Translations under genes and position numbers: made by a program
Notes under the pieces: model-generated
Seen by the model: only the letters and a program-made list of their open reading frames with translations
Told to the model about the DNA's origin: nothing
The model's database searches: none
In this document: positions 22,140 through 62,500 of the stretch, in pieces
Numbering within the stretch: position 1 is the stretch's first letter
Layout: every line of letters begins with the position of its first letter
DNA from: Pisaster brevispinus
Taxonomy: Eukaryota > Echinodermata > Asteroidea > Forcipulatida > Asteriidae
Direction: 5' to 3'
Assembly (NCBI GenBank): GCA_023634235.1
Contig: JAMKCF010000001.1
Span: forward strand, 18,114,258 to 18,178,257
DNA length: 64,000 nucleotides

Positions 22140-24060
22140 AAAATTAAATTTTTGCATTTGTTGTAAGCTACAAAACAACAATAACTATACGACTTTACGA
22201 CATGTGGTTCAGGAGATATGATTTTTTAAAGGAATAAGCTTCGAATTACCGTAATTCGACACCTGATGACATCATAGTAAAAACAAATGTGTCATTCATT
22301 CTAATAAATTTCACGATGGTAAAAAAAAAATCCATCCAATGTATTTTCACGAAAACCCTAAACCTACGTAGGAATTTACATGTTGCTCATGTACAAATCG
22401 AATGGGCTGTGCACAAAGCAATGAGTCCTCTACCGGTTAGGAATCGAATATCAAGGATCAGAAGTGCATTGCATATGTATTAACCCATCCTGTTTATAGA
22501 TTGTTAATAGATTCCTTTGTGTTGCAAATACAAGTTTAATTAAACAAAAGCCAAAAAGTCTCTTTAAGGTGAACATTTTTCATTTATTGTCACACTAAGT
22601 ACAAACAGGTTTCATAAAAAAAATTAAAAGTTCCAAGAAATTTTGCTTTTTAATGCAATCGATGGAGATGCACCATTGTGTCCCATTTCATCGTTATTTC
22701 TAACTTTTATGTTGCCATTTTTAAGGGTATTTTACAATTAGTTTATTCACAAAAAGTGGACAGAATTTAGAATGTTATTCTCCGCCATAAACATTCTTTT
22801 CTTTAACGATTTATTAATTTGTCATATTATGTCAAGCCAAAGTGCAATCTTCTCACAAATTCTTCTAACAAGCAAATTTGGGGATTCACAATTCATTTTT
22901 TTTAACAAAAAAAAAACCAAGTAGCTCCCTGAGATGACATCACTGCAACAGCACCCTCGGTAGTCAAGATAAGGGCGGAATTGTTTTAAATATTTACCCA
23001 AATTCAGGTCCTTTAACAACAGCAAAAACAAACAAGGAACGTTTCGCTGCACTTTGTTTCACTGTTTATTGAGTACTGCAAAACTCTGCAGAAAGAAAAG
23101 ATGTTAAGAATTTCTAAAATGATAGTCTTTATCAACTGAAATTGATTCTAAAGCCAATACAAACTTGAAATAAACCAAATCATACTGTGCTTGTTAACTA
23201 CACACTAGTACAAAAGATGCTTAGTAGTTCTACATCATTTACACTTTCATAACTTAAGAGTTAGATTTTGAACTGCCACAAAAAAGTGATCATGCCAAAA
23301 TACTCCAAACTGTTTTATAGATTTTTTTTTTCTTGCTTTACTCATCAGAGTGAAATTCCATAAATCCATAGTACATGTTAATAGGGGTGTAACAATACAT
23401 TAAAGATAAACATGATAAAGAACGCTATTATACAGCATTGCGATAACTGCATTTGACAGTAATGGGTAGGCATACCCAGAGTTGTGGGGACTTTTACACA
23501 GTGGAACAATGAAATGAACCGTTGTGCATTGTGATAAAGGTGATCATATCATACTGGATATGAAAATTATCGACATATATTTCCAAAAGTTGAAATTGAC
23601 TAAATTTTATGATGGCATACAGAGGTGGTCATGCCAAAATGTTACTATTCCTCATTGAATATGGGACTTGGTACATGGTGTGTACTTGTACACTTTTCAA
23701 ACTGTTGCTTTAAGTGTTGTGATCCACATTTAATTTGTGAAATGTTTATTTGACCATCAACTCATGATAAATTGAAAGAGTAAATAAACATTTACATTGG
23801 GTAACCAAATATCTTTGTTCCATAATGTACATTCCTTTAGCTGTCTTTTTAGCCTTCGGTATCATACAATTTTCTAAACCCCCATGAGTTGGGAAGCTGT
23901 TGATGTTTTTAAATCCTAAAATGAAAGCCTAAACACTGATTCAGACTCAAAGAACAACCAATACATGTTTCCGATAAACAATCCGTTTGTGCAGTTGATG
24001 TACAGGGTTCAGTCACCGAGAGTCCAGCACTTGATGGTCCAGCTGTTGATGGATCAATCC
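22140..24060. other. AT-rich spacer without recognised gene
   Basis: No exon with supporting splice sites and domain evidence was found on either strand, and there is no long open frame. Poly-A and poly-T tracts and unclassified unique sequence only. Confidence 0.5.
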
Positions 24061-24179
24061 TTCATCCAGTCTTCCAGATTTCCTTATAGAAATAAAACAT
24101 GGGGAAAAAAAGCAAAATGTTACAATCTATTGAAAACAAATTAAAAAGTTACCAAGAAATTCATAAACCCGCATTGTTT

Positions 24180-25110
24180 TTCCCTGGGGGGGGGGGGGGG
24201 ATTGGAAAGGATGATCAATCAACTAACTACGTGGTGTTCTATAGCTGTATCTCGCAACTCGCGTTATTGAATCTTAAGTTAGGTTTTAATCTTGCACTCA
24301 TATTATCGAATCTCACAGATTTCAAACCCTTCCCTTTTTTATTGATTATGTCGAAACAAAGAAATGACCATGAAGGGATGGAAGAAGCTCGCCACTCTAT
24401 TTTACAGAGGGATTGATTAACATTGCCATTGTTCAATGATATGAGGGCGAACATTTACACCTCGGATGCTCATTGTCTGGTAAAATGTACCCATAAGTTA
24501 ATAAAACCCCCATAATGTTGTTGTTATTGGGGGTGTTGGAAAGGTTATTCATCCACTAACCTGTATTTCACTGTGACTAGGACCAATACTTCAAATTAAA
24601 TAGGAAATTTAAAATATTTCTAATGGGGAAGCAACAAAGATGGGAAACATTTCCGTAGCCAAAGGGGATTTATTCAATTTTTTAATTGATGTTGAACTTC
24701 CTTTCTCTTGTACCTGTTTAAATATTCCTGGTGAGGAATTGGTAGCTGAAACGATAAACTTGGATGAATGGAAAAACAAGTTGCAAGTCGATTTGTCACT
24801 CACTCAGGACTTTTTTTTTGGGGGGGGGGTCTTCTAATAATTCCCAAGTATTGTATTTTGTCAAAGAAAGGATCAATGAAGAGGTGGAACAAGCTTGCCA
24901 CTCTATCTTAAACAGAGGGATTATAGCATTGTCCTTGTTTAGTGACATGACGGCGGTGAACACCATCATTGACACAGGCTCAAGGTGTGTACATTCGGAT
25001 CATTCCGTGCTGCCCAATCATGTTTGCCTAGTATCCGGACAAGGAGTTTCTAATCATAAATCACTTACCCGTGGAATTTTCCTTCTTGTTGTCTGTTTGG
25101 CCATTTCACT
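24180..25110 (+). repeat. Two diverged copies of an unclassified, possibly once-coding segment
   Basis: Around 24,350-24,450 and 24,860-24,960 both strands of evidence point to a duplicated segment. On the plus strand the translations read MEEARHSILQRD and VEQACHSILNRG, each followed by L-F-x-D-M. Poly-G runs (24,186-24,200 and 24,821-24,829) precede each copy. The frames are broken and no family is recognised. It may be a relic of a TE gene. Confidence 0.4.
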
Positions 25111-25799
25111 TTCTAGCTTTTCAGCTTGACTCCCTGACTACGTTCTGGCAATTTTGGGGGCATTCAGTGTTGACTAAACTAACTCAAACTGCACCCTTTA
25201 TGAGGTGATTCGCTGGACCGAGTTCGTTGCTCAAAGACGCTTGCAAGGATGTCCTCCATGCAAGGACGTACGTGTCCAATGTGCGTTAAAAAATAAACTT
25301 CCCTTAGTCTTCCACCGTGAAGAGTCTGTGTATTATGTACAAAGTACGCAACAACATCGCTCGTATACGGGACTGGGACTTGATCAAGTTTAGAATCTTA
25401 CAGCCATGGGTTTTTGTACACAGATACAAAACGCGCAATAAATGACGTCATGGTGACGTCGTCTGGCATTTTAGGCCAGCAAACAGTATCCAACTAGTAT
25501 AAAATCGAAAAAAGTTTGACGATCAGACATACACTTTTTGAGATATGGTGGTCTCAAGATTGGCTTATTAAATATTCATGTCATTATAACTGAGTAAATT
25601 AATTAATTAAGTTAAGTTAAGTTAAGTACATTTTACTATAACTTCATGACCTAAGCTTTAATATGATATATGATTTGACTATTTTATACTAAGCCTAGTA
25701 TGAATTTAGGAGGTAACAAAATGCATGTACAAAACCTATGGCATTTTGGTGGAAATAAAGAATAATAATAAGAAAAACAAATAAAAATCCTAACGAAAA

Positions 25800-25965: not shown

Positions 25966-26094
25966 AAAATAATAAAAATAACTAGACACTAAGTGTTTGT
26001 GAACAAACACAAAGCTGTTCCGTTTTGTTGTGCTTTGATTAATTGATCCAGACATTTAAAGTGAGCCTAAGTTCAAGATTGAACGATATGGTTC

Positions 26095-27000: not shown

Positions 27001-27039
27001 GCAAAGATTAACTAGTTAAATATTCAAATGTAGCGCCCG

Positions 27040-27829: not shown

Positions 27830-27866
<37 letters not shown>

Positions 27867-29581: not shown

Positions 29582-29618
<37 letters not shown>

Positions 29619-31334: not shown

Positions 31335-31374
<40 letters not shown>

Positions 31375-39472: not shown

Positions 39473-39508
<36 letters not shown>

Positions 39509-39519
39509 TAATAATCCCA

Positions 39520-39935
39520 AGAAAAACAAAACCTGTTCCGACTGCTAGGTCGGAACAGCTAATAATAATCCCAAGAAAAACAAAACCTGTTCCGACTGCC
39601 AAGTCGGAACAGCTAATAAGAAAAATAATAATTCTAACAAAAACAAAACCTGTTCCGACTGCTAAGTCGGAACAGCTAATAATAATAATGATAATAATAA
39701 TAAAAATAATAATCCCAACAAAAACAAAACCTGTTCCGACTGCTAAGTCGGAACAGCTAATAATAAAAATAATAATCCCAACAAAAACAAAACCTGTTCC
39801 GACTGCTAAGTCGGAACAGCTAAAAATAATAATTCCAACAAAAACAAAACCTGTTCCGACTGCTAAGTCGGAACAGCTAATAAAAATCTCGACAAAAACA
39901 AAACCTGTTCCGACAGTAAGTCGGAACAGCTAATA
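39520..39935. repeat. Right-flank hairpin array (seven copies)
   Basis: Seven copies of ctgttccgactgctaagtcg plus gaacag form hairpins with 10- to 11-bp stems, spaced by cta, AAT-rich DNA and ccaacaaaaacaaaac (about 60-80 bp period). The last copy has the cagtaag loop, like the left-flank copies at 25.9 kb. Each stem is followed directly by CTAA. The plus-strand open frame at 39,688-39,933 is only the repeat translated. Confidence 0.92.
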
Positions 39936-39949
39936 AATAAATGGAGCCG

Positions 39950-41861
39950 TCAAAGTTTGTAAATTGAGTTTTCACTCATTGCCTTATTGACATTCTGTGC
40001 AGATTGCTTCAGTTGGTGGCCTCCTGTTGATGCTGTGTTCTTGCAAGTGAATCGGTGACACACTGAACACATTCTGGTGGTTCTTGCTCTCAATCCTCTA
40101 GGGCATATTACACACCTCCCATGCTTAGGATATACCTCGGGACGTTGCTCTTGCTGACGAGGATGATCAACTTCCATACCGATGTAGCGCATGGCGGAAA
40201 GAGTTTGTCCACGCAGTAGTTCGGGATGCGCAGCCCGCATATGGAGCAGTGGTTGAACCAAGCCATCTATCAGTTGCCGTAAAAACAACCGGCGGGTTCT
40301 AGCCTCACCTCGCAGATTTGGGTGAACTTCGTTGAAGAGGACATAGGTGTTGATGGCAGCTACATTCAACATATGGTAGAACACCACCATAGGCCAACGT
40401 CGGGTGATGCGTGCACAGTTGTACAGACTGCACATCTGATCGACTGTGTCGACGCCGGCCTTGGTGGAATTATAACAATGAATAATCTCCGGCTTTCGGG
40501 AAGATTGGTCTACTGTGTCATCATGGTGCATGGTTGACAGCAGAAGAACATTGCGATGCTTTTTAGGAACAAGACACTATTGTCGCCATTCCGGAAAACA
40601 TGAACTGGGATGATTTCACTTCTCTGCGCTTGGTGTTCTCTTTTCGAAGCTCATGTGGTACTTCTCTGCGAATGTTATTGATGGTGCCAACAAGAGTTAA
40701 CTTCTTACTGAGAAGGAAATCTGTCAGATCTTTACTGACAAAGAAATTGTCAGCTGTAATGTGGCAGCCAGTCCCATGAAGAGCTTGCACTAAGTCCTTT
40801 ACTACACGGGCACCAAGATTTTTTTCAACTCTACCGTGCTCCTTGCCAATGTACGGCATCATGTTGTGAACGTAGTGACACTCACTGTCCACAGAGACCC
40901 AGAATTTTATGCCATACTTGGCGGGTTTGTTCGGGATATATTGCCAAAATGAGCAGCGACCCCGAAAGGCAGCCATCTGTTCATCAAATGTAACACACTC
41001 CCCGGGAGTGAAGTGTCGGCGAAGCGCATCTACAAAGAGTTTGAATACCTCCCTGATAGGCGCAAACTTATCTGTTTCCTTCTGTTGGATGCGAGTTGCT
41101 TTGTCATCAAAGCGCATCATCTGTATGATGTCTGAGAACCGCTTGCATGTCATGGTGGCTTGCAGAACATTCCCGGGGTCCAGAAAGTACGACCTTTCTC
41201 GTGACCGGACTTTGTCAAACCAAGAAAGCCCGATGGCCGCCCTCAACTCAACCATGGATACGTTGACCCAACTTCTACCTCTTTTCACAAGCCCCTGCAT
41301 ATTGGTCATGTCGATGATCATCTGTAACATGGCAACGGGGAAGAACAACTCGAACAGCTCCAATGCCGTTGATGCCCCACCCAGGTTTCGGGGGCCCTTT
41401 GCTTGTGTAAGGATGTTGGGCGGAGCTGTTTTGGCGACTTGAGTTGGCGTGCTTGTCCATATGGTTCCATCTGGCGATGTCGTTTGAGCAGCTTGTCTGG
41501 CCAATGCTGGTTCATGGACATGGGCAGCCTGCCGACCACGGCGAACTGGGCGCCCACAGGCAGCTGGCTGTGCCGGGGCAGGAGGATTTGCCATGACAGG
41601 TGCCTGGCGTCTTCCTTTCGGCAATATGTGTGCCGGCCGTTTATTTGGTGGTGGCACAAGTGGGGCATCGGAATCTTCGCTCTCCTCCTCCTCATCATCA
41701 TCCGTACTACTCCCCTCAAAACTCAGTTCATCTGATGAATGCTCGTCAATATCCGATGCTTCATCTTCAGAAGATTCGCTGATGCCACTAGCATCACTCC
41801 CCTCATCTACAAACAACCCTCTCAACACATCATCGCTCGAGATCCTGCTTGATGAAGCCAT
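39950..41861 (-). pseudogene. piggyBac-family transposase, frameshifted
   Basis: Seen: two open frames, 41,861-40,563 and 40,531-39,950, together cover the family. The N-terminus from Met at 41,861 (MASSSRISSDDVLRG) is acidic and Ser-rich, followed by a Pro/Ala linker. The DDE_Tnp_1_7 core includes VTFDEQMAAFRGR (first Asp), GCHITADNFFVS (second Asp) and, in the second frame, STKAGVDTVDQM (third Asp). The C-terminus has the Cys-rich zinc-binding tail (CVICPRG, CSVCHRFTC). Reading frame changes occur between about 40,610 and 40,555, where an early TAA (40,563-40,565) ends the first frame. Known: these enzymes cut and paste at TTAA. Clear TTAA-flanked ends were not found, so the copy is probably truncated as well as frameshifted. 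An upstream Met at 41,963 extends the frame but lacks piggyBac-like sequence. Confidence 0.93.
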
Positions 41862-41989
41862 AGTGATGGAATGAACTGAAACTGTATATTGCAGAGTGGT
41901 TGTGGGATTGATCACACTATCAACGGCAAAATAACTCTTCCCCTGCCTCAGCAGTTCACGCAATTACCACCCCCCTTGTGTATACTCTC

Positions 41990-42396: not shown

Positions 42397-43140
42397 TAAG
42401 TCATAAACGGCCCCCATACAGGTCTCTCCAAGAGTATTGAAGACTTGATCTCCAAATGTGTGACCTGCGCAAAACATCGACCAGAACAGCGTGAACCTCT
42501 CATGCCAGCATCATTCCTGTCGCGCCCCTGGGAAAGACTCGGAGCGGATTTGTTTGAGTATCGAGGGAAAATCTACCTCATCGTCATTGACTACTATTCA
42601 CGCTGGATAGAAATGAAGTCTCTCTCATCTGTCCAAACCTTAGCTGCTGTGATCCAAGCCTTGAAGGAAGTCTTTGCAGTACACGGAATCCCAGACGTGA
42701 TTATGTCCGACAATGGGCCACCATTCAGCTCAGCCTCATTCCTCCAGTTTGCAAAGACATACGGATTCATCCACACTACTAGTTCCCCACGGTACCCACA
42801 TGCAAATGGGGAAGCCGAGAGAGCAGTTCGCACGATCAAAGGGTTGCTTAAGAAGAACGCAGACCCGTACCTTGCCCTTCTCATGTATCGCTCATCCCAA
42901 CTTCAGAATGGCCTGTCCCCAAGCGAACTATTGATGGGCAGGAAACTAAAGACAACCCTGCCTATCCTTCCATCAAATCTATATCAAAAAGCTCAACAGG
43001 ACCAGATGATCAGACAGAAAGAAGAAGTATCGCACAAAACAACAGCACAACTTCAATCTTCGTCACCATCCTACGACTCTACCAACACTACACCCTAGTG
43101 ACTCAGTTTGGATCCAAGACCAGAACCGCCAAGGGACCAC
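42397..43140 (+). pseudogene. Ty3/gypsy-type integrase fragment
   Basis: Seen: after an in-frame TAA (42,397), the frame reads HTGLSKSIEDLISKCVTCAKHR, the end of the H2C2 zinc-binding domain, then the catalytic core with D in LGADLFEYRG, D in VIMSDNGPPF and E in HANGEAERAV. This is the DD-35-E order of retroelement integrases, with spacing as in Ty3/gypsy. The frame shifts near 43,025 and continues in another frame as DSVWIQDQN, typical of the post-core region, ending around 43,140. There is no protease, reverse transcriptase or LTR in the window, so this is a 5'-truncated, frameshifted relic. The usual integrase is 350-400 residues; about 240 are represented here. Confidence 0.93.
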
Positions 43141-44506: not shown

Positions 44507-47500
44507 GTGAGAAATGTTCACAATTTCAACAAAGTTTAGAACCTTTAACTTAAAGTTTAAGCACGTCGTGCATGCTACACGTAATTGTTCGTGCAACCCT
44601 GGTCACCTACATGCAAAACTACACGCTCCAATAACGACGCACTTTGAATTACGTTTTGCTTCGCATATCCCGAAGAACTCGCATGTTTAATATGACATAC
44701 AAATGGTTGTATCAACTGTCCAATGTCGTGCTTGTTTCAATCTAGCAACATTTCTTTGAAATGCAAAGATTTACACAAACTTGTCGTTTATTGCATGCAG
44801 GCCAGTGTGGAGTAGGCCTACCCCGGTCCCCTCCGCCCTCTGGCATGGCCTTACTGGAGGCCATGCCGGAGGGGACTCATTAGTTCAAGGGGTAGAGTAG
44901 GCCAAGTGCCTAGGCTAGGGCCTCTAGGCTTACATGTATGATATTGATAGGGTTATGAGCAATTGCCAAACCAAAGTTAGTTTACAGCTTTTTAAATTTG
45001 GTCTGGTGCCTTGTGTGTGCATGCAGTACACATGGGTGGAAGTGTACAGAGAACTAGACTAGTTCAGAAATATTTGTGAAATGAAAATTTCACCCTTTTT
45101 TCAAATGTATTTTGTATTTAGTACACTAGTTCCTAGCAGTGAGTGTCAGTCACATGTCATTTGTATTTATGGGTGTAAACTTGCATCCAAAGCAAAAAGC
45201 CTCAAAAAGTTATAAACTGTAACTTTGATTTGGCAATTACAACCCTACATCATACATGATGTAGGGTTGTGATCATCATAACTAGGCCTAGTCCTATTTA
45301 GAGGCAGGGGGTCAGAACCATCATGTGATATTTTGCATCCACGGAATAGGCAACCTCATGGCCCAAATTTCAACACTGCCAAAATTACACAAATGGGTAC
45401 AATTTTGTAGCTAATAAATATGATCTGAAGTTTCAGGAAATGTATTTTTCATTTTACTCTCAATTTTCCCTGATTTAGTCTCAAATGAATAACAATTAAA
45501 ATCATAACAAAATCATAAAATTGGAGGAAAAATTTACCTCAAAATAACTTTCCACGTTTTCCTAATTAAGATAATTGCTTCAGTTTTGTTTCTGTGGCCA
45601 GTCTATCATGGGCGTTTCTTATGATATATAGCAAACATAAATAAGCTTATCTTTTTTGTGTTTTTGGTTGTTTTTAAAAAGTTACCTTTTTTCATGTACG
45701 TACACCAACAAGAACTTTTTTTTATCTCCACACTTAACACTTAGGCAAGCAATTGCCATAGTACAAAGCACAATTGATGTCTTCTATATGTAAATTATTC
45801 AGAGTTTTAACATGATTTTAAATGACCATTTTGTTGTATGTGTATAGTCACGGTTGCTCTATCATAAATAGAGACAAGCGATTCCCACGCCATGTGAGTG
45901 TATTAAATCTGGTTCAACGCTGGTTGACCTCAATGTATTACATTGTAACAACTTTGGTATTTGAGATTGGGTTCAGGACTTTGCTGATTATGGTGGTTTA
46001 CATGTGAAATTTGCTATACAGGTTTTGTATCTAATCTCATAAATGTATCATAAGCACTGGGGTCTGTGGTTACACATACCTTCCAACTGTCCCTATTTTC
46101 TAGGGACCGTCCCTACTTTGGAGAATCCCAATGTCAAAAAAATAGAGAAAGTCCCTAATTCTTAAAATCTTGTAATACTGAAAAATAAGATATGAATTTG
46201 GTAATGGAGCTGTCCTTCATAATAACTTATGACCGACCTTAATTTTCTGGATCTTACAAATGCCTGAATCCATGTCTTTGTGCACATACTCATAGACTGT
46301 AGGTGTGGGTGCTGAGACACAGATCTGGCCCCATGTCCCTATTTCTGACTTTGCTATGTTGGCAGGTATGGGTTACATGTGCTATACAAATTGCTTATTG
46401 TTAGTATTATTAGTACAATTATTTGTACAGTCAGTGATTCTTACTGTCAAAACAATCTAATAAGAAATTTTTACAAATTTAATAACATTTTGTACTGACA
46501 GGGCAGTAACTGCTTTAAGAAAGAGCATGGGAGATGCTTCAGATATTGCCTTAGATGAACTTCATCAGTCACTTTAAACACTTCGAACTTGTTTTAATGG
46601 ATTTATAACTCAGTACCAGCGAGAAGCACACCTGAAAGTTCAACTACAGCAACATGGAAAAGGAAACGGTGTACGGAAGCATTGGTGAGTACATGTATAA
46701 TACTATTTTGTATAAGGCACCTGGCAATAGGGTTTTAATATTACAATAACATGTATTTGCATCATGCCATCACTTTCCCCACTTTTATTGCAAATCCGGA
46801 GGTATTTAAAGTGTTACTAGAGCGATTTTGGGGAAAGCAGAAACGATTGTAAACCTTGCAGACATTATATCAGACTACTATTTAATGAGTAAGTTAAGTT
46901 ATTTGTGTTCACAGTTTGTCTGTAATATCGCATCAAAAAAAAGGGTCATTATTGGGGATTTGGCAAAACTTGAAAGCATTTCGCCGTTGAGGGCGTTTGA
47001 TTGGTTAGAAAGATCGTGACGTCACAGGGTGGACTAGGTTGTTGACGTTGCGCAATCACGGCTGCAGCAGTGTGCGAGCAATGCGAAAGGTCCGTCGAGA
47101 ATCACACGTCCTGATACATGTCGTTGCTAAATGGTCTGGATACGACTTAAAATGCCAAAAACGTGTGCTGTTGGAGGCTGCACAAGAAGCAGCCCTAAAA
47201 ATCCTCATTTCAGCTTCCTAAAATTTCCAGCAGATTCTGTTATTAGGAGACAATCGATACGTTTTGTAAACAACGCGATCGAACTTCAACGTTTCGAAGT
47301 GTTTGTTGATATGTGCATCGCACGCACTTCACCGACGACTGCTTCTGTGCTTGGATACATCGACCGAACTCAAGCAACAGTTTGGATTCACCCCTAAAAC
47401 TACCCTGAAAACTGGTGCAGTTCCAACAACACTGAAGGCCCCTAATATTTCTACATCGTGGTCGGGGGAACAAGATGAAAAGCCACAGAGTGAAAGGGCA

Positions 47501-50500
47501 GAACGGAGGGGAAAAAACTGGAGCGAACAAGGGTGAGTGTGTGGTTGGTGAAACAGTAAAGTACCTCACGAAAGTGGGGACTGGCCGCGGCATGCATTGC
47601 AGGCATGATCGTCGGACCGGCCCCCAGCCAAAGTTTCCCCATGTTTTCAAGGAAGTGCGGCTTCGACGTGTGCATGATAATCTTTATATGTTTTTGCGCT
47701 ATTTATGTGATATATTTCATGGTGGTCTTGCATTTAATGCATGCTGTATTATGTATAAAATTGATGAAACGATCGATCAGATGAGATTAAGATCGGGAAG
47801 AAAGACGTGTCCGGATACTGGGCAAAACCAACTGGCAATGTGTACATAATATTAGTATTACGTTTTCATCGGGTGTCAAATGGTGTTAAAGGGACACACC
47901 GGCTTACTGTTTATCTAATATAGTGATGTGGAATGACAGACAACAATTTTTAGATGGTTCGTGTAAAAAAGAATCATCAAAATATCACGTAATTAACGAA
48001 AAATGTGAAAAAAACAAAATGCGGTCAAAGGTCAGCTTATACGCTTTTCCAGCCGTTGCAACTGTCAAGTTTACGTACATTGTTGCGCAATGTTGTAAGT
48101 AGACTGGAGCTCTGTTTATGTATAAATTATAAAAATGGCGAGGCATGAGGATCCAGACTTCATATCCATCAAGCACAAATTCACGTGTAAATAAAAAACA
48201 GACATGAACGGACGTCAGTCCATAGAACAAGGTTCCTTGCTCTATGGTCAGTCCTAGTCGAAATCCGCTCGCGGTCGTAACCAATAACTGTTTCGGTTGA
48301 ACTTGCCATTGAAACAGTTATTGGTTACGACCGCGAAAACGCACCCCAACCTGTATTCTGTGTACGACGACGTACTGTATTCTGTGTACTTGCAATGGAG
48401 AACGTTTCTTCGACATCCAAGGATCGGCACAAAAAACATCGCAAGGAAAAACACCCAGAAGGTGGTCCAACGAAAAGTAAAGAGTAAAAAAACCAAACAC
48501 GATAAATCCAAAGGGAAAGCCAGCAAAAGCAGCAATTGTGGGGGGGGGGGGGGGTTGGACACTGCAGCTATCATAGAAGTAGACCAGCTGTATGGGATAA
48601 ATATTCTCCGTCGCCGTCCCGCGTGTGTAGCGCAGGCAACACGTTGCAATAGTTAGGGGATAATAGCTAGGGTATCAGACTAAAATCCTCCTTAAAAAAA
48701 CGTAATTGTTGGTCTGGCTCCCTACCCCTCCGACAAGCTCCCAAGCTCACGGCTAGACCGGCAAGCCCGGGCTTGTCTCTCTGGCCCCACGAGACACGGC
48801 ACAGGCTGTACGGGATATGCCCCATGGTTTCATTCCGCTAGCTCCCACGCTGGTGCGCCGTAAAACACGCTTCGGTTGCACGGACTCTCTGAATGCGAAT
48901 CTTACGTTCGATTTTTCATCATTATTTACAAATTGTATCAATAATCTGAATACATAGTCTTTTTTGTCAAATACTCATGAATAATATTTAAAAAAAAAAC
49001 AGATTTAAATTTGGTTCAGTAATTTACTTTTATACGGCTGGAAGTAAAACTATCTCCGAAGATCACGTGATTTATCCGAACCACTTTTTTGGTTCGGATA
49101 AATCACGTGACCTTCGTTTTTTGAAAAATGCTCAAAAACGGCAAAATTTGATGGTTTCTTTTAGGAACCGTTCTTCTCCATTCCTGGAAGACCTTTGAAG
49201 TCATATGTTAGCCTATTTTGTAGCCCAAATAGCCCAACGAAGCCGGTGTGCCCCTTTAATCAGGTCAAACAATAACTACATCATTGTAAGCTTGGGCGGT
49301 TTTTCGGTATTACCGAGTAGTCACGGTATTTGTTCAATACCGAAAATACCGTGAGCTGTTTTAGAAATACCGAAATACCGTCCCGCACGGTTTTCAATTT
49401 CGATACCGCGGTTTTTTGCCCAAACCGTTGCCATACCACAGCACCAAACGACAAAAGAAAAAAAGAAAAAAAACACACTCACACTCGCAAGCCGCAGCAC
49501 AATCTAAACGATCTCTCTGTGGTCACTCAAGAGTAACAAGCCTATCCAGATTAAAAGACCGCGTTCCCACTGGATCCACAATTACGAGATCCTGACCCCG
49601 CAAAAGGATTAGTCGCAGACGTGAATCGCGGTCGCGTTCCCACTAGAGTATGATCGCGCATTGATCTCCCTTTTGGGAACGGAAGTGGATTCAAAGTTCA
49701 CCAACGCAGGTCGACCAAGTGGGCAGTGCGCAGGCGCAACGTATCTATGGCGACCACACAGTGTGGGGTGGCTCCTCTACTACGCGCGCGCGGCAGTCGC
49801 CATTTTTTTGTCATGATAGTACATGTACTGTATACTGACTACTGTTGACCGACATGATGGACTTTTTTGTGCCATTTATTTTGTTGCGCCATCATCTACG
49901 TCTTCAGAATAGTATTAGAATATCAGCTTTTTTTGAGCTTCGTTCTCGACATCGAAGACATTGTAGACGTCGGAGAAATGAGCGACGGTTGCTTTTTATG
50001 CGACGAAAATTCGTCATGTATGCCCTCATGTTCGAAACGGCAATCACTGAAGACCATCACCAACAAGTCGACAGGTACTACTAGAAGAAACATTTTCTCA
50101 AACACTCGCGCCATTCGGGCCTACCGTACCGGCTGTTCGCCCTCAAATTGCGGGGTCTGATCGCCCTTTGCGTTCCCACTAGACTTTTGATCGCCCATTA
50201 ATCCACAAGGGCGATCAGATCCCGCTTTAATCCTACTCCCGAGGTGGATCAAATTTGCGGGGTCTGATCCTGATCGCCCTTGCGTTCCCACTTACGCTTG
50301 ATCGCCCTTTTCGAGAAATTGCGGGGTCTGATCGCCCTTTTCTCGAATTGCGCGATCAATGAATGGAACTAGCGCCCAGAAAATGTTGATACTTTGTAAC
50401 CTCCAGTCTTATTCGGTCTCTTCAGAAGTTGCCGACGCTCCTACACGTTTGCGGTTTTCCTTGGCAATTATTGCAACTGTCACTCAAGTCTTGTCTGGCT

Positions 50501-53500
50501 CTGGCAGGCGTTTTGGTTTCAAGGACCGAGATTTATATCCCAATCGTTGACACTTCTTTTTAAAAAAGGTTATGGGCCCGGGAACAATTAAAACACCAAC
50601 TATTAGGGTAATTTAGATACAAGGCATAATTTGTGGGGGTGGGCATTGGATAGAGAATTCGGCCGGTTTTTATGGCAGTCCTTTTGCGGTTAGGTAGGAT
50701 GATTTGTGCAAATTGTTTTTTTTTATTACTTTATCTTATCACTAACTTGCCGTTGGCTCGATACTAAGACAAAACTGTGGAGGATGAATTTATACAATGC
50801 GGTCGACAAGTCGCAAATGTTACTTCCTTAAGTTCCTTTCTCAACAATGTTATTTCCTTTCTAAAATAAGCAACTTATACTTTATTAATACTCCAAAATT
50901 CTTTGCCCTGTTGCTTCCTCGAAGACGGAAATTGTTATAGTTAAGAAAGGAGCCGACGAAACGTGTAAGCATATGCGGTAAGATGTTATTTCCTGTAATT
51001 AATAGTCAAATAAACAAAATATTCATTCACAAAATAAAAGACGGTTGAGTATATTTATTCGTGAGAAACCGCTGCGTGGATTCTGTGGAAAGACATAAAA
51101 GGCATTCCAAATCCCTGAATAATCATTTATTCTGCAATTTGCTAACAATCTGCATCTTCTGAAGTCATCATGGCCGAACTTGCCGAACAACGTCTTTTAC
51201 CGAAGAAGAAACCAGTGCTGCAGTGTGGAACCACTTCGGCCTTGAACCAGATAAACACGGAGCTCCGCGCAACGAAACTGAAGCTGTATGTCGACTTTGC
51301 CGCAAAAAGGTTGCAGCAAAGTACGGCAACACTTCAAACCTCCTTGCCCATCTTCGGGCGAATCATCCTGCAGCCCACGCCCAAGTTGCCAAACCACGAA
51401 ATCGTGCTGCATCACGGACCATTGGAGCATCATCGTCAAGGACCTCATCTGAAAACTCCAAACAACAAGCAACGATCTCAGATGCTTTTGCTCGCTCACA
51501 AAAATACGACGGCAAAGCACGCGCTGGAAAGAGCTGACGGATTCTGTGACGCAAGTTTCTTGCAAAAGAAATGCTTCCCTTCTACACGGTAGAGAAAAGC
51601 GGCTTCAAAGACATGCTGAAAAAATTTGACCGCCAGTACGAGTTGCCTGGACGGAAACACTTTTCAAAAGTTGCTATTCCACAACTTTATGGCAAGGTGA
51701 GATCACGGGTGGCAGAAGAGATGGGAGAGGCAGAATTTTTATCTGCAACTACTGACATGTGGTCCAGCACTACTATGGAACCGTATGAGTCTGACGGTCC
51801 ATTTCATTTCGTCAGACTGGAAGCTTCAGTCGAGATGCTTGGAGAGCTCCTTCTTGCCGGACAACCACACAGCCGACAATCTCGCCAAAGCTCTGCAGTC
51901 GGCCCTTCAAGAATGGGACATCCCCGTAACCAAACTGTCCTGCATCACAACAGACAATGGGGCAAACATTGTGGCTGCCATTAGACAGTTGGGTTGGACG
52001 TGGCTAAACTGCTTCGGACACAACCTCCACTTAGGGGTTAATAAGGGCATAACTGACCACACCCAAAGAACGAGCCGTGCACTTGGGCTATGCCGCTCCA
52101 TTGTCGGATGCTTCTCTCATAGCTGGCTGAAGAAAAGAGACTTGGCGAAAGCTCAGGCCAACTTGAACTTGCCAACACATTCGCTCATCAGGGTAAGTGT
52201 TTCCTTTTTAACAGCGTTTTACAATTTTTTTTATTACGTTAACGTATGACAGAAGAATTTTCTTTAATAGATCTCGCAACTTAGAGCAAGTTCGGGTGCA
52301 AACCTTTTAGTAATTAAATCACGCACGCGTGGCCTGTGGTTCACTCGATCGCATTTATCCGATTGATTCAATATGACAACTCATATATTGGCTCGTAAAA
52401 CAAATAAGCATACTTGCAAAATACAGTGCAATGATAATTATTATCTTAATATTTGACATCGTTTTGGCAAAAAAAAACTACCGTTTATCGTTAAACCAAC
52501 TGTTTGTGTTATTGCAAAAGCTTACAAAATTGTCTCCGCCACGAAACCAAACCGCCATCTTGACAAAGTGACGTAACTTTGTTACTTGACTAGAGAAACA
52601 GTGCTCGGGCCCCCAGTATGTTCCAAATGCATGAGTCTGTCTCTTCACACTTTTAAGTAAATCGCAAAATGATTGGTTCGTCTGCAATCAAATTTGTAAA
52701 CATGAAAAGTTTATTTCGTTTAATTCATTTGATTATGCAGCCACCCCCCCCATGACATGATTAATTTTGGTTGACGGTATAACTAAATATTGACTTTTCA
52801 TTTACAGGACTGTTCCACTCGATGGGGATCAAAGCAGAAGATGGTAGATCGTGTGCTTGAACAGGCACCAGCCCTGCGCCAAGTATTGGGCGAAGACGGA
52901 GCTCACGCCCACCTCGTCCCATCGTGGCAGAATATTAGCGTGTTGGAGGCAATCAACAAGGCGCTGAAACCAGTGGCTGACTTCACAGACATTTTATCCG
53001 GAGAAGATTACGTCACGGTGTCTTCCCTTTTGCCTATGCTTGGGCACCTCTCTGACAATGTGCTTTGTCAGAATCAAGAAGATGAGGGCCTCACAGCAGA
53101 TATCAAAGAAACCATAGCTGCAAAATTGAAGACGATGTATGACTGCGAAGCAACGCAGAATTTGCTCCGGATTTCATCTCTCCTTGATCCTCGCTACCGT
53201 ACAGACCACATCCAGGCAGATTATGTCCAAGAAACAAAGGAAACGGTCATTGACGAAGTATCAGCCATGGCTGTAGCCGGAGAAGCGATCCATGATGAAA
53301 GGGAAGATCAGCAGGAGGAACAAGAAGCGGCCGCGGATCAAACGCAACCGATAAAGCGGAAACGTACACTTGGAGGTCTACTAGGGAAAAAGACAAAGAG
53401 GGAGGATCCAACTTTGTTGTAGAACGCGCTCGTCTTGCACTTGAACGATATCTAGTAATAGATGACGTTGACTGAGATGCCGATCCATTGGTGTGGTGGT

Positions 53501-56500
53501 GTGATCACCAGTTATCAAACCCACTATTAGCCAAATTAGCAAAGAAATACTTGTGCATTTGTGCAACTAGTTCCCCGTCAGAGCGGCTATTTAGCACAGC
53601 AGGACACGTTGTAACCCCAAAACGATCTCTTCTAAAGCCGGATAAAGTTAACATGCTCGTCTTTCTCGCAAAGAACTTGTAAAATAACGTCCTTTCTGCA
53701 AAACAATGGCACCGACCGATGTTTATCCCTTTTTGTTTTAATATAGTGTACTGTGCGTAATGTATAACAAACCAACTTAAGTTGTGAGAAAGAAGTTTAC
53801 AGTTGTCGTTTAATTTAATTGATACATTTGTAAAACCAAACAACCAAAACATTTTTTGAAAACCAAATAAAAGCTACCGATAGTTCGAAAATAGCCTGTT
53901 GTCTTTTTACTTGTCTAATTGCAAAAACTTCATTTTGGTAGCATGGGGAAAAAAAGGCAACCATTACAGAAAAACATCAACTGTGTATTGTTTCTTCTCA
54001 ACAAATAGAGGCAGGTAAACTTTGAAGTGTAAGTGAATTTGATTTTGTGATCACTACAGATTGAAATGAAAGATACCCATTTACTTGTTTAAATTGCCGA
54101 TACAGTTGACAAATGTTTCTTGTGAATCTTGAGTAAAGTTACCTTCAGATGATAAAGCGAGATTCCTTTCGATATGACTTTTCGTTCTTTAATATATGGT
54201 ATTAAAACTAATATTGTGGTTTTCCCCATAGAAAAGTGTTGATCTCGATTATTAAATGCAAAACGCGTTTTCGCGGTCGTAACCAACAACTGTTTCGGTT
54301 GAGCTTGCCATTGATACGACTGTGAAAACACACCCTGTCATTTTGTCTTCTGCAGCCTATCATCAGTAACAAACAACTTACTCTGGCGCGGCGTGCTTTG
54401 TAGTCTGACTATGGTCGCTGGCGCGTTTAACCTAAACCCGCCCCAGTCTGTACCATTATTGAGCGGGGAAGTTTGTCTTTTATAGCTCGTATTGGTGGAT
54501 GCAACGCCGAGATTTAAGTTGTAACTTGCTACCCATACTCGTTTTACTACGGTCGAGACACACGTGCGGCTATAAAGATGCGGCACTGCACTCAATAAGT
54601 GAAAAATGGCCCAAACGAAAGGCTGGTAACACTTGTATTCGTTTGTGTGCAATGGCAATGGCATGGGTACCAACACTCGCACGCAACAGCCATGTGCAAA
54701 AAGCGCAGGCCAAGAAAATACAACCTGCAAACATGATTGCGGCGGCTTTGGAGATTAATATTAGCCAGTAAACTATCGTTTCCCTTCAAGAAATGCAACG
54801 TTGAGGGACCCAAGGTTAGTCGAGGCGAGCCATGTCCATTGGAAATCAGTACTTTTTTGCAAATAGCTGCCAGAGAAGTAATGTTTTTTTGTACCCAATT
54901 CATTTTTTAAAATCCCTTTCTTGTACCCCCACAACCATGACAACCGCACCGTGGGCAGGTGGGTGAACGGCCATGCTTTTCACCGCAGTATCCGTTGATT
55001 TGTTTTTGTTTTTGATGACGTAATAGAAATAGCCCCGCCCAGAAAAGTTCCCGCTAATACCGAATACCGTGGTTTTTTCGTCACGGTATACCGTCAACTT
55101 GAAAATTGAAAACCGCCCAAGCTTACATCATTGTATACATTGTATATCTCTCTGTAAAATAGAAGTGGGTAGCTTAATATTACATCCCTTCCTTAATTAA
55201 ATAATCCTGTCATCGTTACAAATACAATACATGGGGAATGTTTCCTTCAATGTTGTAACTAACTTGTACTCTATAGTCATATGTATCCTCCTATGTTGCC
55301 AAGGGTACTGACTAGCCAGTAGCCTCAGGCAGTATGAATGGAACGGTCCAATGGAACTACATGTACATGTATAATGGAAGATCTTTCTTGGTCATATAAT
55401 GAGTGAAATATATTAGTAAGTGTCTTTCCAAAACAAAAACAAAAAACAACCATAAAAACACATGTAAAAAATTCAGTTATGGATTTGTGCGGTGAATAAA
55501 AAAATTGTGTTCAATGGATTGTACTATTTTACTTTTGCTAGATGCTGAAGGAAATGTTTGAACCTAGAGGAACAGCTGTACTGTCATCAGCTAAACCATC
55601 AACGTCTTCAGCGTCTGCTACACTGTCCACAAAATCAAGTGATCTGATTGATTCATCTGATGAGGTAGATGTTAATTATTTAATATTCCTAACCATCTAT
55701 TCTTCTAAAACAAAATTTTTACTAATTAAATTTGATTGAAAAGCATTACATAGATACTGAATGTCATGTCGTAATTTCTTGAAAGTGTACAATTCACACA
55801 CGACGTATTTACTTAGGAGATTATTCCTGTGTTCAGCTCATGTGAAATCATTTTGTGATAGGTCAGTTCAAATCAAGTGCCCTTTATATGTCACATTTAT
55901 AATGTATATTATTTGCCAAAAAATATTTTGTTCATATGTCAAATAAAAACATGTAAATGCATTTGTTTGTTCCTAGGAATTGGCGTCATCATCATCTGAA
56001 ATGTTTAGAAGTGCTGTAACCCATGATTCATCCACCTACAGCTCAGATACCAAGGTTATTATCGTAGTCTGAATCGGAATTTAGAATAATGAAAACAATA
56101 GAGATTCAACTAAATATAGAATCTAGAAAGTTGATATTGTTTTACAGGAGGCTAGAGGAGTATGTAAATTGTTTACCAGATATATTTTGTGGACCAAAAT
56201 AAATGTTTATTTACTCTAACTCTTTCAACTAAGTTGATATTGCAATAGAAAATTTATATATTAAAAGTTGATTACAATACTTTCACAAGCAACATTCTGT
56301 GGAATAATTTTGCCAAAGTTGTAATAATGTGCAAATACAAAATTAAACCTACTAAGTAAACCAAAATGCAATTTTTTTTACAACTTAACTAGCAGAATTG
56401 ACTATTCAGAAGTTCCATTGTACTGTTTGCTCGAAAAAGCAAAAAGATCAATTTACTTGTAAACAGTATTAGCATAAGAAGTTTGACGTTGTTAGGAAAG

Positions 56501-59500
56501 TACTGTATAAATCTACATGTGCAGAGCTAAATTGGGTTTCTGAAATAGAAACATTGCAAAAAATTTCCATGGGAGTGTCAACATAACACAATATTTTTCC
56601 AAAATTAAAAGATAGTACATGAAAATAAAGAGCTGTAAAATACTTCAAAGTGGGCATTTTCATTACCACAATAAAAAAGAGGGGGTAAAAAACTTACACT
56701 GTTACTTCTATACATAGGCTTGTGGTTTTACAAGCACAACCAACATTTCAATATGTAAATAAGACTGTTTTTGTGCAGGACACATGTACTTTTAATCGAG
56801 GACTTACTAGTAAAATGTTGAAATGACTTGTTTTTTGGGCTACCACAAAATTCTGTTTAATTGCAACCTCTGGAAATACCATGCTGTTTGATTAAATTCC
56901 ATACCAAGTAGGGGTCTCATGATATGATATGATCACAATGCACCACTGTTTGTTTTATTATGAAAAATTTAAGTTTAGGAAATGTTACACTGGAAACAAT
57001 TATTAACACGACAGTAAAAATAGCCCAAAAATTTCTCATATTTTCTTTACACACTATTACTTTGTCATTTTATTGTCAATGTAATGTTATATCCCTATAT
57101 TAAAGTAATTGGCAGCTTTTGTACTGTCGAGTGAACTCTGACAAGTTTGGTCATCAATACAGGGATGCATGTCTTTCCTTAGTGCCATACAAATCAGAAA
57201 ACACTGTTTATATGCAAATATTTTACCTCAACAGTTTTTATTTATTTTTATCAAAGTTGCATGTTCATGTCTAAAGTAAAATTAAACAGCAAAAATATTT
57301 TTGAAAGAAGTACATGTACAATGTACATGAAAAGTGCATACACAAAAATGAAAGTTAATCCAAATCGGGATAGCAGAAGCCTTTGTATTTTCCATCTGGG
57401 TTCGGGTCGGGTATGGATTTGATTCACCGCACAACATGGCAGTGGAACTTGACGGTAAGCCACATGTCGATACTTCCTGGAGATTATAAAGAATTTAATA
57501 AACAGAAAAATATAAGTACCAAGTAAGTAAACTTGTGAATTTACTATACTAGTTCATACTGCAATACAGTGTAGCCATTTATTTTGCGGAATCAATCAAT
57601 CTATCTTAATATTTCTATCTTAATACATGTAATCTTGTTGACCATACAAACAATACTATAAAAATGGAAGGAGTCAGTTTTAACTTTCTGTAGAGTTATG
57701 TAATTTTATTATGATTTTTTTATGATCTGATTCTATGTTCTATTTAAAGTTGTACAGTGTACATGTTTATTTACAGCATGGTGTATATGGAGACAAAACA
57801 CAATGTCTTTTGTTGAACTTTTTCAATGTACAACACTGGTAATATTATTAAACAATTAAGAGTTTTAAACATACAATCACTTTTGTCTTAAAACACTACT
57901 TACTTGTCAACTATTCCCTGTATGTCCCTTCTTCCATATTGAGCTTGGTACTGTAAATGTGCAGTCTGCAGAACTGCAAGATGCAAACAGCAGGCTTCGA
58001 ACCATTCATGCTGGCTGATACACTGGTCCTGAGCATCCAGGTTGATCCTCAAATCTGTCATTTTTGTGCGAATTGCATCAACCTCTTTACAGCAAATACA
58101 ATTTGAAATATCAGGTTGCATGATGCAATGTCCACAAGTACACCTGGATATAATAAGGGGGAGAGGAGAAACAACCTTAACATTGTGATGTGTGCAAATA
58201 CTTTTTGTGAAGTTCATTTACAAATAAACCTCACAAAAACAAGTTTTAATTTTACTAAAACTAGGATTACTTTATTCATTAACTTTTAATATTTATATAT
58301 AAATATGCTTTTGTTATTTTATTTATTATTATTTTTTGGGGGAGGGGGTAAGTTTCCTTTTTGTTATTTGTAAGCCTATACAAGTGTAGGCTTATGCATG
58401 GGTCCTTGTGGGAAAACAACGGAACGATGGACCCCACAAGGTATTCTTCATTTAACTTGGACCCAAAAGAGGAATTCTTTAGAAAAAGGAATAATAGGAC
58501 AGCAATAGCAGGACCCCACAAACCGGATCCATAAGGGTGGGGTGTGTGCCCCAACACATGCCAACTTAAAGGGTACACTACATTTAACAATTGATTAATT
58601 GAACAATACTACCCAGTGTGGACCTGAGAACAAAAGAGGTCCACATAATGTAGGGATCTGAAGCACTATGTGGACTTACACACGTCCACACAACGTTATT
58701 TGCAGTGTTGATGAATAGGATTTTCCTTAAGTGTACAGAACAAAGGAATGTCCACACAACGACTGCAAAACAAGACTGTGTACCTGAGTTTGTTTTCACA
58801 TTCAAACCGGGGACCTATAACAAAAGAGGGACAATAGGAGGTCCCCGATTGGAGGTGTTTACACACTTGTGTGTGTGTGTGTGGAGGGGGGAGGGGAACT
58901 TGATCCCAATATTTCACATCTTTGAATGATTAGACCATGTACATGTAGTAAGTAACTATTTTAGGATTTCACCCATGCATTGCGTCAAAACATTTATCAA
59001 AAATTACTTTTAAACTTTGATGGTAAAAGGGTGCACTAAAATTAAATACCACACTGGATAGGAATACTGCGTAAGGTGATAAACAAGTTATTTTGCACAT
59101 TCTGGGGTCGAAATACCAACCTAGCTTACATTACTAATGCGGTCAAAACAATGTTTGATTTTTGAATGGAGCCTGATAATTAATTCACCCATAATAAGAA
59201 AGCCTATAAAACTCAAGTCAAAGCAAAACAGTTTTCTACATCTATTTTCTTTTCTTTTTTAATTAAAATTATTCAATTAGTACTAGTACTAGTACTTTTT
59301 TAGTAGCAGTGGTGAAAATATACATAATTATTAAACTTTTTTCATCATGAACATGTTCTCTCTGAACAGTACAAGTAGGATGTACTAGTGTAAAACATAC
59401 TACTACTAAGCACTATTATGACTATCATTCACTACGTAAACTATGCCTGTACAATTCACACGTGTGTGATGATCCATGTGTGTACTGGCAGTGGCATGAA

Positions 59501-62500
59501 GGTACCCATGTAGTCAATCGGCAAAATTCACCGGGCAATGCGAAGGATTATTTTACAAACCCAATAGTTAGTGTAGAACTAGACCCAGTGGCTTAAAAAA
59601 CGCCTACTGGCTTCTTGATATGTCTAAGATGCAACATCAGTCATTTAATTGTACTCACGATCATGTTTTGTACTCCGAATTGACGATTTTTTAAAGTCAA
59701 TATGAGCTGAGAAACCATCCATCACGATCCATATCTCGCATGTATCGACGGGTGCCCTGCCTCAACAACCGCGTAGTTTACATGGTTGAGGCAGGGCACC
59801 CGTCTGAAAAGCAGGCGGTTGTTTTTATAAGCTTTTTTGTTGGGTATTTTTTTCATTGAGCCATTTTTTGTGGCTTGGTGTGGTGAAATCTTAGCAAATT
59901 GAGGTTTAACAATTGAGTGTACTATTAATTCCTGGGGCTAAGTACGACCACAGATGACAAAATTTCGAAAAAACGAGTACAGCGCCCCAGTTAGTGGGTC
60001 TATTCTAGACTAACTACACTAGACTCTAGTGAATATTTAGAACTACGCTACGTTGGGCTACGTCGGTTTTTAAAATGAAATCAAGTCAAAATTTGAACCA
60101 CCTTCACTAAATAAAAAACCAGGAATGTATTAGAATTCCGGCCTCTACTCACTAGTCTGTGTTTAAAAGACGATCGTTGTCCTAATCGGATTCCTCTTCG
60201 TTGTCATCTTCCCCGCCTTGGCCTACCGGGGCTATGGGCTCGAACCTGTACGGTTCTGCACCACGGACTTCGTCGTAATGCTTTATCGTCTTCGACTTCG
60301 TCGGCAGCCCGTTCAGGCAAACTGAAATTGCTGGAATCACTACCAGAATAAATACTGTCGCTACTACTGTCACCGATGGCATCCTCTGTTTACACTGTGA
60401 GCTTCCCAAGAACTGTCACTTTCAGCCATGGTGAAATATGCAGGAGAATTCGTGAAACAAGCCTAAGCGAAGGGAAAGTAGTGGCTTCCTTCACGCCGTT
60501 GTGTATGACAACACAAGACCTATACCACCCTGTGACGTCACGCAGTGTTTGCGGAAGCTGTGCACAGGGACTCTACGTGGGGGGTCTTTTCGAGATTCGG
60601 AGTGGCGAGTGCAAAAAAATGGGTCTGTAAAAGTTGTTTTTTTGGCATGAACAAAAGAGCCAACTCTTTGGGTTTTTTTATGTGACATAATGAAGTATCA
60701 TTCTACAGTTTTATTATAAAAGGGAACCGCAGCACAAATCGCTCTAGTAACACTTTAAGTACGGCACATTTCGTCTTTTTATGCTAATGAGGATCAGTTT
60801 ACAACCGAAACCCTAGACATTTTTATTTTAGGGGCTTATTTTTTCCTAGATTGAAATGTGCCCATGAATTTGTCAGTGTTATATTCAAAAAGAAAAACTA
60901 CACAAAGAGAAATTCTCTAATGAAAAAGTGGGGGAAAAATGTATTTGTTGACCCGCATACCATGCATACTGCAGAAAAGCTTTAATAACTTGTCGCCTAG
61001 ATTTTTATAGCAACCTATCTAATGACTACGTGTACCAGACTCCTAAATCGCTTAACTCCAGCGTATCCAAAACTCAGCTGCAAGACTAGTCACTCTCTCG
61101 AATCCATGTTGAAATCATGTAAACACATATTATCCCCTATTCCACTAGCTCCTAAAGTGGCAGATAATCTACAAGACCCTTCTCCTAATTTACAAATGTC
61201 TTCGTGGTCTTGGCCCTACTTACCTCCAGCAATTAATCCATAAGTACGAACCTCAAAGAAATCTCCGATCAGGCTCACAATCCCTGCTCAGCTGTTATTC
61301 ACCTCCGTTTATATCTGTACAAATGTTTCAGGACGCAGAACAGATTCTTAAGAAGTCAGTGACAGGAAGGAACATTTTGAAAAGCTTGAGTGATAACAGG
61401 TGTCTGACCAAGTCAAACAGATTCAAGATGACAGCAGTATTCGTAACTCAACTGATCGAAACACATGGCTTTAAGTAAGTAACAGCATGGTAATAGTAAG
61501 AACTGTTTAATTTAAACTTAACAAAAGTACATGATCTAGCTGCTTCCTTAATCTTACTTTTTTACTGAAACAGTACTTGATACCAATGATTGTAATTAAG
61601 CCCTTTTGACACGACGGCGTAAAGGATACAAATGTGAGATATTCGTATCTTGCATAGTTTTCAAGCCTTGCAAGTTTTTTGGACAAGGTCGACAACATCC
61701 AGCCATAAAGGCTCTTTCTACTACAGGAGAGATTCAGTTCTGAGCTGGTCAAGACCCCCAGGCTACCCAAGATCATCCTGGACATAAGAACTGGGATGGC
61801 CTAGCTTGTGGAACGAGCCTGTATGATGCGAGCACAGGAGATCGTTGCGACAACCATGTTGTCTCTGCGGTTGAGTATGTGAGTTGCAGTAGTTAAAAAC
61901 ATTTCTTTTCACACTTCCATTTCATTCCATTTATTTCTGACAGGCCAAGTGCTCATGAAAAGCAGTTGATGGCAGAGAGCATCGTTGAAGCATTCCCTTT
62001 CCTGAAGGACACAGAAGGGACTGGATATGTGAGTCTAATTCTTAAAAATAAACATAAGCACCCTCTGTTAAACCTATCATCTTTTTGAAAAGTGTAGTTA
62101 TGTTCAGCTACAATGTATCTAAACAGTTATTCTGCTATTATAGTCAAGTTCTTAATGTACCTTCGTTCAATGTTTTCGAAGGTTAAGGATCTACAATATT
62201 TCCATTTTATCCAAGGTAATTTGTGCGACCATTTTGGATTTTAAAGATGGAAGGGGTGGAGTCCAGTCCCCACCCCTACATCTTGTGTTTTCTTCACTTA
62301 TAACTTGTATAGTCACTATTGCGATGCAACAATTTTATTGTAAATTTATTGCAGGATGCCTGGTATACAAAGGGTGCTAAAGATCGTCCAGCCACTGGTT
62401 ACTTAGAGGAGAGACTTCGCTACGTTCGTAAAACCATGATCAAATCACACCTCACTGTGCCCGAAACAGATGATGAAGACATTCCAGGATGTAGTCAGGG

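What the first reader, a model, noticed from the sequence alone, without database searches (positions are those of the whole stretch)
46810..60754. Two-gene TTAA transposon pairing a THAP gene with a P2X7-type domain gene
The two ends share a 19-bp perfect inverted repeat, TTAA flanks and an identical 18-bp CRE block about 205-212 bp inside. Inward-facing genes start 342 and 325 bp from the ends: THAP on the left, the Cys-rich P2X7 intracellular domain on the right. A mobile element carrying this receptor-type domain beside a DNA-binding THAP protein would be an unusual gene pair and could explain scattered stand-alone copies of the domain in invertebrates.
Basis: partly seen in the sequence, partly recalled or inferred. 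Interest (0 to 1): 0.9.

Follow-up and report, generated by a model that had tools for sequence, protein, structure and literature searches.

The report
Shortened Kolobok jumping gene, P2X7-like passenger
The stretch is a worn copy of a jumping-gene family of an already described kind (Kolobok) that carries a relative of the tail domain of the immune receptor P2X7; the part that first looked like a separate DNA-binding gene is the front end of the jumping gene's own enzyme, whose working core has been lost.

Summary
Window 46806-60758 is a TTAA-flanked DNA transposon with perfect 19-bp inverted ends and an 18-bp CRE block inside each end. A hAT (8-bp duplication) and a TTAA-ended MITE are nested in it. 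The genome holds 91 exact ends: 36 facing pairs and 19 unpaired ends; 21 pairs measure 6.1-6.3 kb. Twenty of those 21 were read: all have TTAA on both sides, are 95-100% identical, and have unrelated flanks. Genome-wide, 45 of 73 P2RX7_C genes face a THAP match within 20 kb (control mean 0.7).

This is Kolobok, Kol0 lineage. The 'THAP gene' is the 5' part of a THAP-DDE transposase; the P2X7-type gene is its accessory gene KolX, identified as the P2X7 ballast domain by Kojima & Bao 2022 (PMC9587614). A longer relative holds the DDE core between matching segments; the window family lacks it through an internal deletion of about 5.56 kb, the junction being found in 18 of 21 copies. Both genes are broken in the window, so copies were presumably mobilised in trans. 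Possibly new: the mirrored CRE block.

The parts
46806..46828 (+). TTAA target duplication (46806-46809) and left 19-bp terminal inverted repeat (46810-46828)
   Evidence: exact match to the right end; 91 exact TTAA+end sites in the genome, reversed control 0
47015..47032 (+). left 18-bp CRE block CGTGACGTCACAGGGTGG
   Evidence: TGACGTCA kept at 39 of 40 ends of 20 copies
47152..47530 (+). broken 5' exon of the Kolobok transposase gene, holding the THAP domain; 3' border approximate
   Evidence: THAP 16.9 bits in one frame, 38.0 bits read across frameshifts; copies aligned
47886..49259 (.). nested TTAA-ended MITE, 1,374 bp (later insertion)
   Evidence: TTAA+16 bp inverted pair with 1 mismatch; junctions
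49287..55125 (+). nested hAT transposon, 5,839 bp (later insertion), 8-bp duplication CATCATTG on both sides
   Evidence: 17-bp identical ends and duplication; zf-BED 47.7 bits, Dimer_Tnp_hAT 63.5 bits
55542..55664 (+). first linker exon remnant of the transposase gene
   Evidence: shared with W copies and with the longer relative L062
55977..56056 (+). second linker exon remnant of the transposase gene, ending at the deletion junction
56055..56056 (.). junction of the internal deletion that removed about 5.56 kb with the DDE core; shared GT
   Evidence: comparison with L062 and L040; junction string in 18 of 21 copies
57357..57475 (-). KolX exon 3 remnant, shortened inside
   Evidence: longer form in the relative L040
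57903..58145 (-). KolX exon 2 (Cys-rich part of the P2RX7_C domain), open in this copy
60155..60429 (-). KolX exon 1 remnant with frameshift and stop
60525..60542 (-). right 18-bp CRE block
60736..60758 (-). right 19-bp terminal inverted repeat (60736-60754) and TTAA (60755-60758)
23508..25172 (-). second, diverged relative of the element interior; no KolX found
   Evidence: four collinear pieces, scores 45-77, none in reversed or opposite-strand controls

Best explanation
[quoted passage not shown] In the longer relative (C1:15.087-15.100 Mb) a THAP-DDE transposase gene reads in from one side and the gene for the accessory protein KolX (the P2X7 ballast domain) from the other. A deletion of about 5.56 kb removed the transposase core and left a roughly 6.2-kb element with both ends, both CRE blocks, the THAP exon and KolX. 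Shown: ends, duplication, copy number, junction, core in the relative and not in the copies, decay of both genes. Inferred: copies multiplied because a transposase made elsewhere recognised the intact ends; THAP binds subterminal DNA; the CRE blocks act as promoter or binding sites; KolX helps transposition. The window copy later received a MITE and a hAT.
For: Exact ends; 91 sites, control 0; 36 pairs; 20 of 20 read copies with TTAA both sides, 95-100% identical, unrelated flanks. Termini AG..CT fit the 5'-RR/YY-3' rule for Kolobok. In L062: D, D with DIWH, Cys/His stretch, E, Pfam Mutator 28.5 bits over the 26.5 cut-off when pieces are joined. None of five core pieces matches any of 21 copies or the window at E 0.1. 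Junction with shared GT, string found in 18 of 21 copies. KolX of the relative 58.5 bits P2RX7_C. Convergent THAP for 45 of 73 P2RX7_C genes. Kol0 encodes transposase and KolX.
Against: No open transposase with the window family's ends was found; that search did not complete. The relative's left end was not reached and its THAP exon is interrupted by an inverted repeat; its core has at least one stop. Mutator scores are modest: one piece alone 15.7 bits, family B 21.2 bits, both below cut-off. L020-L022 do not show the junction string at 3 edits or fewer. 27 of 73 P2RX7_C genes have no THAP match within 20 kb, though only 150 of 313 THAP candidates were scored. Placement in Kol0 rests on KolX and motifs, not on a tree.
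Confidence: 0.92

Rival explanations
1. A piggyBac-type element: TTAA duplication made by a piggyBac transposase, with THAP and P2X7-type genes as passengers.
For: [quoted passage not shown] The window has a DDE_Tnp_1_7 transposase gene at 39953-41963, a Pfam family I recall as piggyBac's.
Against: Termini AG..CT as in Kolobok; that gene lies outside the element; the longer relative with the same right end has a core with DIWH and Mutator similarity.
Confidence: 0.05
2. A true two-gene element in which a small stand-alone THAP protein and KolX are both passengers of unknown use.
For: In the window family the THAP exon and two linker exons end at a stop soon after the junction, with no DDE core.
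Against: The same linker exons run into DDE pieces in L062; THAP is described as part of Kolobok transposases (PMC6004289); the THAP frame is broken in the copies.
Confidence: 0.02
3. Two separate elements or a chance pair of ends around host genes.
For: The ends are 13.9 kb apart in the window, with other repeats between them.
Against: The extra length is two nested elements with their own ends; 36 facing pairs elsewhere, 20 of 20 read with the same interior.
Confidence: 0.01

Closest known systems
Kolobok, Kol0 lineage (Kolobok-1_XT and relatives); Kojima & Bao 2022, PMC9587614
   Same: TTAA duplication, 5'-RR/YY-3' termini, transposase plus KolX with the P2X7 ballast domain
   Different: The window family has lost the transposase core and both genes are broken; the CRE blocks are not mentioned in the parts I saw; no tree was made
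Kolobok transposases of Xenopus, PMC6004289 (passages)
   Same: Transposase with THAP domain, DDE motif and an H2CH zinc finger
   Different: The window copy keeps only the THAP exon and linker pieces
Stand-alone ballast (ZCD) proteins and nanor; Rump et al. 2020, PMC7016195 (passages)
   Same: Short proteins with the conserved zinc-coordinating Cys motif and no P2X channel part
   Different: That paper reports fewer than 10 genes per species and a linkage to two markers, and the word transpos- does not occur in its main text; here 73 loci in one genome, many nearly identical

Membership tests
Kolobok superfamily | TTAA target site duplication | tested here: met
   window and 20 of 20 copies read; feature from PMC9587614
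Kolobok superfamily | termini 5'-RR ... YY-3' | tested here: met
   AG..CT at both ends; rule
Kolobok superfamily | DDD/E transposase with C/DxxH between second D and E | tested here: inconclusive
   absent from the window and 20 copies; present as pieces with DIWH in the longer relative L062, with a stop
Kolobok superfamily | THAP domain in the transposase (as in Xenopus Kolobok) | tested here: met
   THAP exon in window, broken (38.0 bits read across frameshifts); feature
Kol0 lineage | second gene KolX with the P2X7 ballast domain | tested here: met
   window 20.6 bits, below cut-off; relative 58.5 bits; family D 64.3 bits
Kol0 lineage | place in the tree of DDE cores | not tested
   no reference cores were at hand
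piggyBac | piggyBac-type transposase inside the element | tested here: not met
   none among the ORFs of 46806-60758 submitted to Pfam; DDE_Tnp_1_7 gene lies outside at 39953-41963

The most novel reading that the evidence does not exclude
Some Kol0 Kolobok families carry a mirrored control site: a CRE-centred block about 200-225 bp inside each end, with a family-specific tail that is the same at both ends (AGGGTGG in the window family, ATTTAGAA-GAC in family A). It may serve as promoter for the two inward genes, putting transposase and KolX under CREB/ATF control, and as subterminal binding site for the THAP domain, so that non-autonomous copies with broken genes still keep it.
Probability: 0.25. 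Interest if true: 0.5.

Novelty: new member of a known kind. Interest (0 to 1): 0.3.

Why it matters
The case shows inside one animal genome what was proposed from transposon comparisons: the tail domain of the immune receptor P2X7 is the accessory protein of a transposon. Here the domain occurs in at least 73 places, 45 of them facing a THAP match. It warns that many 'P2X7-like' gene models may be transposon genes, and suggests (untested) that linkage to nearby markers once read as ancestral synteny may be the transposon's own second gene. The mirrored CRE block gives a testable idea about when such elements are expressed.

Tried and rejected
Rejected: chance inverted repeat; two separate elements; independent THAP gene; piggyBac element. 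Single open frames gave a weak THAP and no P2RX7_C; only joined exons or relatives settled it.

Led nowhere: viral-contig scans with the protein and with the end; PDB sequence search with the window KolX gave nothing meaningful, while THAP matched solved THAP domains; Rfam 0 matches. The idea that the TTAARR-to-CRE spacing is rare in the window failed: 3 hits seen against 3.1 expected in the wide range; in the narrow range 3 against 0.9, reached in 6% of trials. A proposed end of the second relative at 25661 is therefore only suggestive. The 16 CRE columns of the two blocks show no change among copies, but about 1.7 would be expected at the mean rate of 10.5%, so this is no proof of constraint.

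Not done: the genome-wide TTAAAG-CRE spacing search, the genome-wide transposase search and the search for ends with mismatches were asked repeatedly and never answered. No allele or related species without the insertion was available. The host species is not known.
Full report
WHAT IS THERE. The interior is longer than the original element because of two later insertions. The first is a hAT transposon at 49287-55125 with 17-bp identical ends, the 8-bp duplication CATCATTG on both sides, a BED finger (47.7 bits) and a hAT dimerisation domain (63.5 bits). The second is a 1,374-bp TTAA-ended MITE at 47886-49259. Without them about 6,740 bp remain.

IT IS A MOBILE FAMILY. The window lies on C1 of an unnamed 549.7-Mb genome in 512 contigs. 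The 23-bp pattern TTAA+end occurs exactly 91 times (43 forward, 48 reverse), the reversed control 0 times. These make 36 facing pairs under 15 kb and 19 unpaired ends; 21 of the 36 pairs measure 6,137-6,292 bp. I read 20 of those 21, chosen by size; of the other 15 pairs only the window's was read in full. All 20 have TTAA on both sides, they are 95-100% identical to each other, and the window copy is 95.2-97.9% identical to them. Their flanking kilobases show no similarity to each other at E 1e-10. Two copies on different contigs (L011, L024) agree at 100.0% to one decimal, so movement was recent on the sequence scale.

BOTH GENES ARE BROKEN. In 21 copies (20 plus the window), KolX exon 1 is intact in 0, exon 2 in 2 (the window and L026), exon 3 in 0; a THAP stretch gave an uninterrupted match in 2 of 21. 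The THAP exon shows insertions and deletions, many shared among copies. Recently moved copies therefore hardly made these proteins; a source in trans is inferred.

THE THAP PIECE IS THE FRONT OF A TRANSPOSASE. At C1:15.087-15.100 Mb lies a longer relative, 81-91% identical to the window family in L040 and L006, with the same exact right end, an almost open KolX gene (58.5 bits; one stop in exon 1) and a THAP match facing it 8.7 kb away. L062, between them, holds the two linker exons known from the window and then transposase pieces in order: a first D (GMDMRADSMGHCAKFGS), a second D with DIWH (TDRHRQI..HFYDIWHVAKG), a Cys/His stretch and an E (SSVEAVHSVINQFAPK); which D and E are catalytic is my reading. 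Joined, the pieces match Pfam Mutator at 28.5 bits (cut-off 26.5); one piece alone gives 15.7. None of five core pieces matches the window or any of the 20 copies at E 0.1. In the window family the base after the second linker exon joins directly to sequence that in the relative lies 5,561 bp further on, with a shared GT. The junction string is found, at 3 edits or fewer, in 18 of 21 copies; L020, L021 and L022, a close trio, do not show it. So the window family is an internal deletion derivative. Caveat: the relative's own left end was not reached and an inverted repeat interrupts the start of its THAP exon.

THE PAIR IS GENERAL. Pfam P2RX7_C gives 76 matches in the genome at E 0.01 (91 candidates, all scored), all over the cut-off; merged, 73 genes. 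THAP gives 150 scored matches of 313 candidates, so its list is incomplete. Of the 73 genes, 45 face a THAP match within 20 kb, 1 has one in another orientation and 27 have none; 1000 random placements, with contig lengths estimated from the listed places, gave a mean of 0.7 and a maximum of 5. Of the 30 P2RX7_C loci read, 15 form family A, 96-100% identical in their best aligned stretch, and three form family B at 99.7-99.9%. One family A copy (C24) repeats the architecture: KolX and THAP convergent, THAP 26.0 bits, ends TTAAAGAG.. 5,166 bp apart with 3 of 14 mismatches. A second TTAA pair with 3 mismatches also exists there; I prefer the first because of the CRE sites. Family B has a DDE-type gene facing KolX (Mutator 21.2 bits, below cut-off), with a DVWH motif. 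Selection, 8 of 27 loci compared: between families KolX exon 3 differs at 9-21% of amino-acid-changing sites while silent sites are near saturation (69-97%); exon 2 at 26-44%; family A against L057 gives dN/dS 0.14-0.21. Within young sets too few changes exist to judge, and one pair gives 1.1.

THE CRE BLOCK. In the 20 copies, 39 of 40 ends keep TGACGTCA at 212 bp (THAP side) or 221-224 bp (KolX side); 6 of 6 further ends (L003-L008) keep it at 210-222 (L001 and L002 are ends of L019). The full 18-bp block is not exact in all. These are related copies, so this is not independent evidence. Independent support: family A has the full CRE about 200 bp inside one end and a half site with nearly the same 3' tail about 212 bp inside the other. 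Family D has the full CRE upstream of KolX in 2 of 3 loci; the third starts too late to tell. Against: family B has none in 4 of 4 loci including the relative L033, and the spacing alone is not rare in the window. I call it a recurring feature of some families; promoter or binding-site roles are inference.

A SECOND RELATIVE IN THE WINDOW. Four collinear pieces at 25172-23508 on the minus strand match the element interior (scores 45-77; none in reversed or opposite-strand controls). No KolX is found there.

WHAT IS KNOWN. Kojima & Bao 2022 (PMC9587614; outline and abstract, Background, section 10 and search passages seen) state that Kolobok makes TTAA duplications with 5'-RR/YY-3' termini, that Kol0 families encode a transposase and KolX, that KolX is like the P2X7 ballast domain, and that P2X7 arose by fusion of a P2X4-like gene with KolX. 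In the library searched, 'KolX' occurs in 1 paper, 'Kolobok' with 'P2X7' in 2, 'Kolobok' with 'THAP' in 5. Xenopus Kolobok transposases are described with a THAP domain (PMC6004289, passages). Rump et al. 2020 (PMC7016195, passages) found the domain across animals; 'transpos' does not occur in its main text. 'Kolobok' with 'cAMP response element' gave 0 papers.

VERDICT. Observation confirmed; interpretation partly right; kind already known; this is a new deleted family of it.

Noticed in passing
window 39953-41963 (-): Nearly open DDE_Tnp_1_7 transposase gene in two frames (169.8 and 44.5 bits), a Pfam family I recall as piggyBac's.
   Followed up: partly
window 42400-43095 (+): Integrase core domain (rve, 52.3 bits), part of a retroelement.
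   Followed up: no
window 25958-39941: Large tandem array with units of about 1.7-2.3 kb and 130-bp subrepeats; seven TGACGTCA sites fall in it (27502, 29258, 31010, 33026, 35364, 37554, 39155).
   Followed up: no
window 48269-48345, 54265-54314, 7835-7943: A palindromic repeat in three places, two of them inside the nested MITE and the nested hAT.
   Followed up: no
G000 contig C1: C1 is 6.3% of the genome but holds 33 of 91 exact ends and 13 of 36 pairs (binomial p 1.3e-7 for pairs); pairs longer than 6.3 kb are 8 of 13 on C1 and 5 of 23 elsewhere (p 0.03). Old copies seem to persist there.
   Followed up: partly
L030-L035, L038, L042: Another P2RX7_C lineage. A partner C-terminus (..RRISTTIAPIPPPPTEQLVKERQTRF) matches in L030-L034 and L042; L038 has a similar-looking one by eye. 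No CRE in L030-L035 and L038, one in L042.
   Followed up: partly
PMC7016195 (Rump et al. 2020): The paper reads linkage of ballast genes to two markers across invertebrates as ancestral synteny; if these are Kolobok transposase genes it would be hitch-hiking in one transposon. The marker names were not in the passages seen.
   Followed up: no
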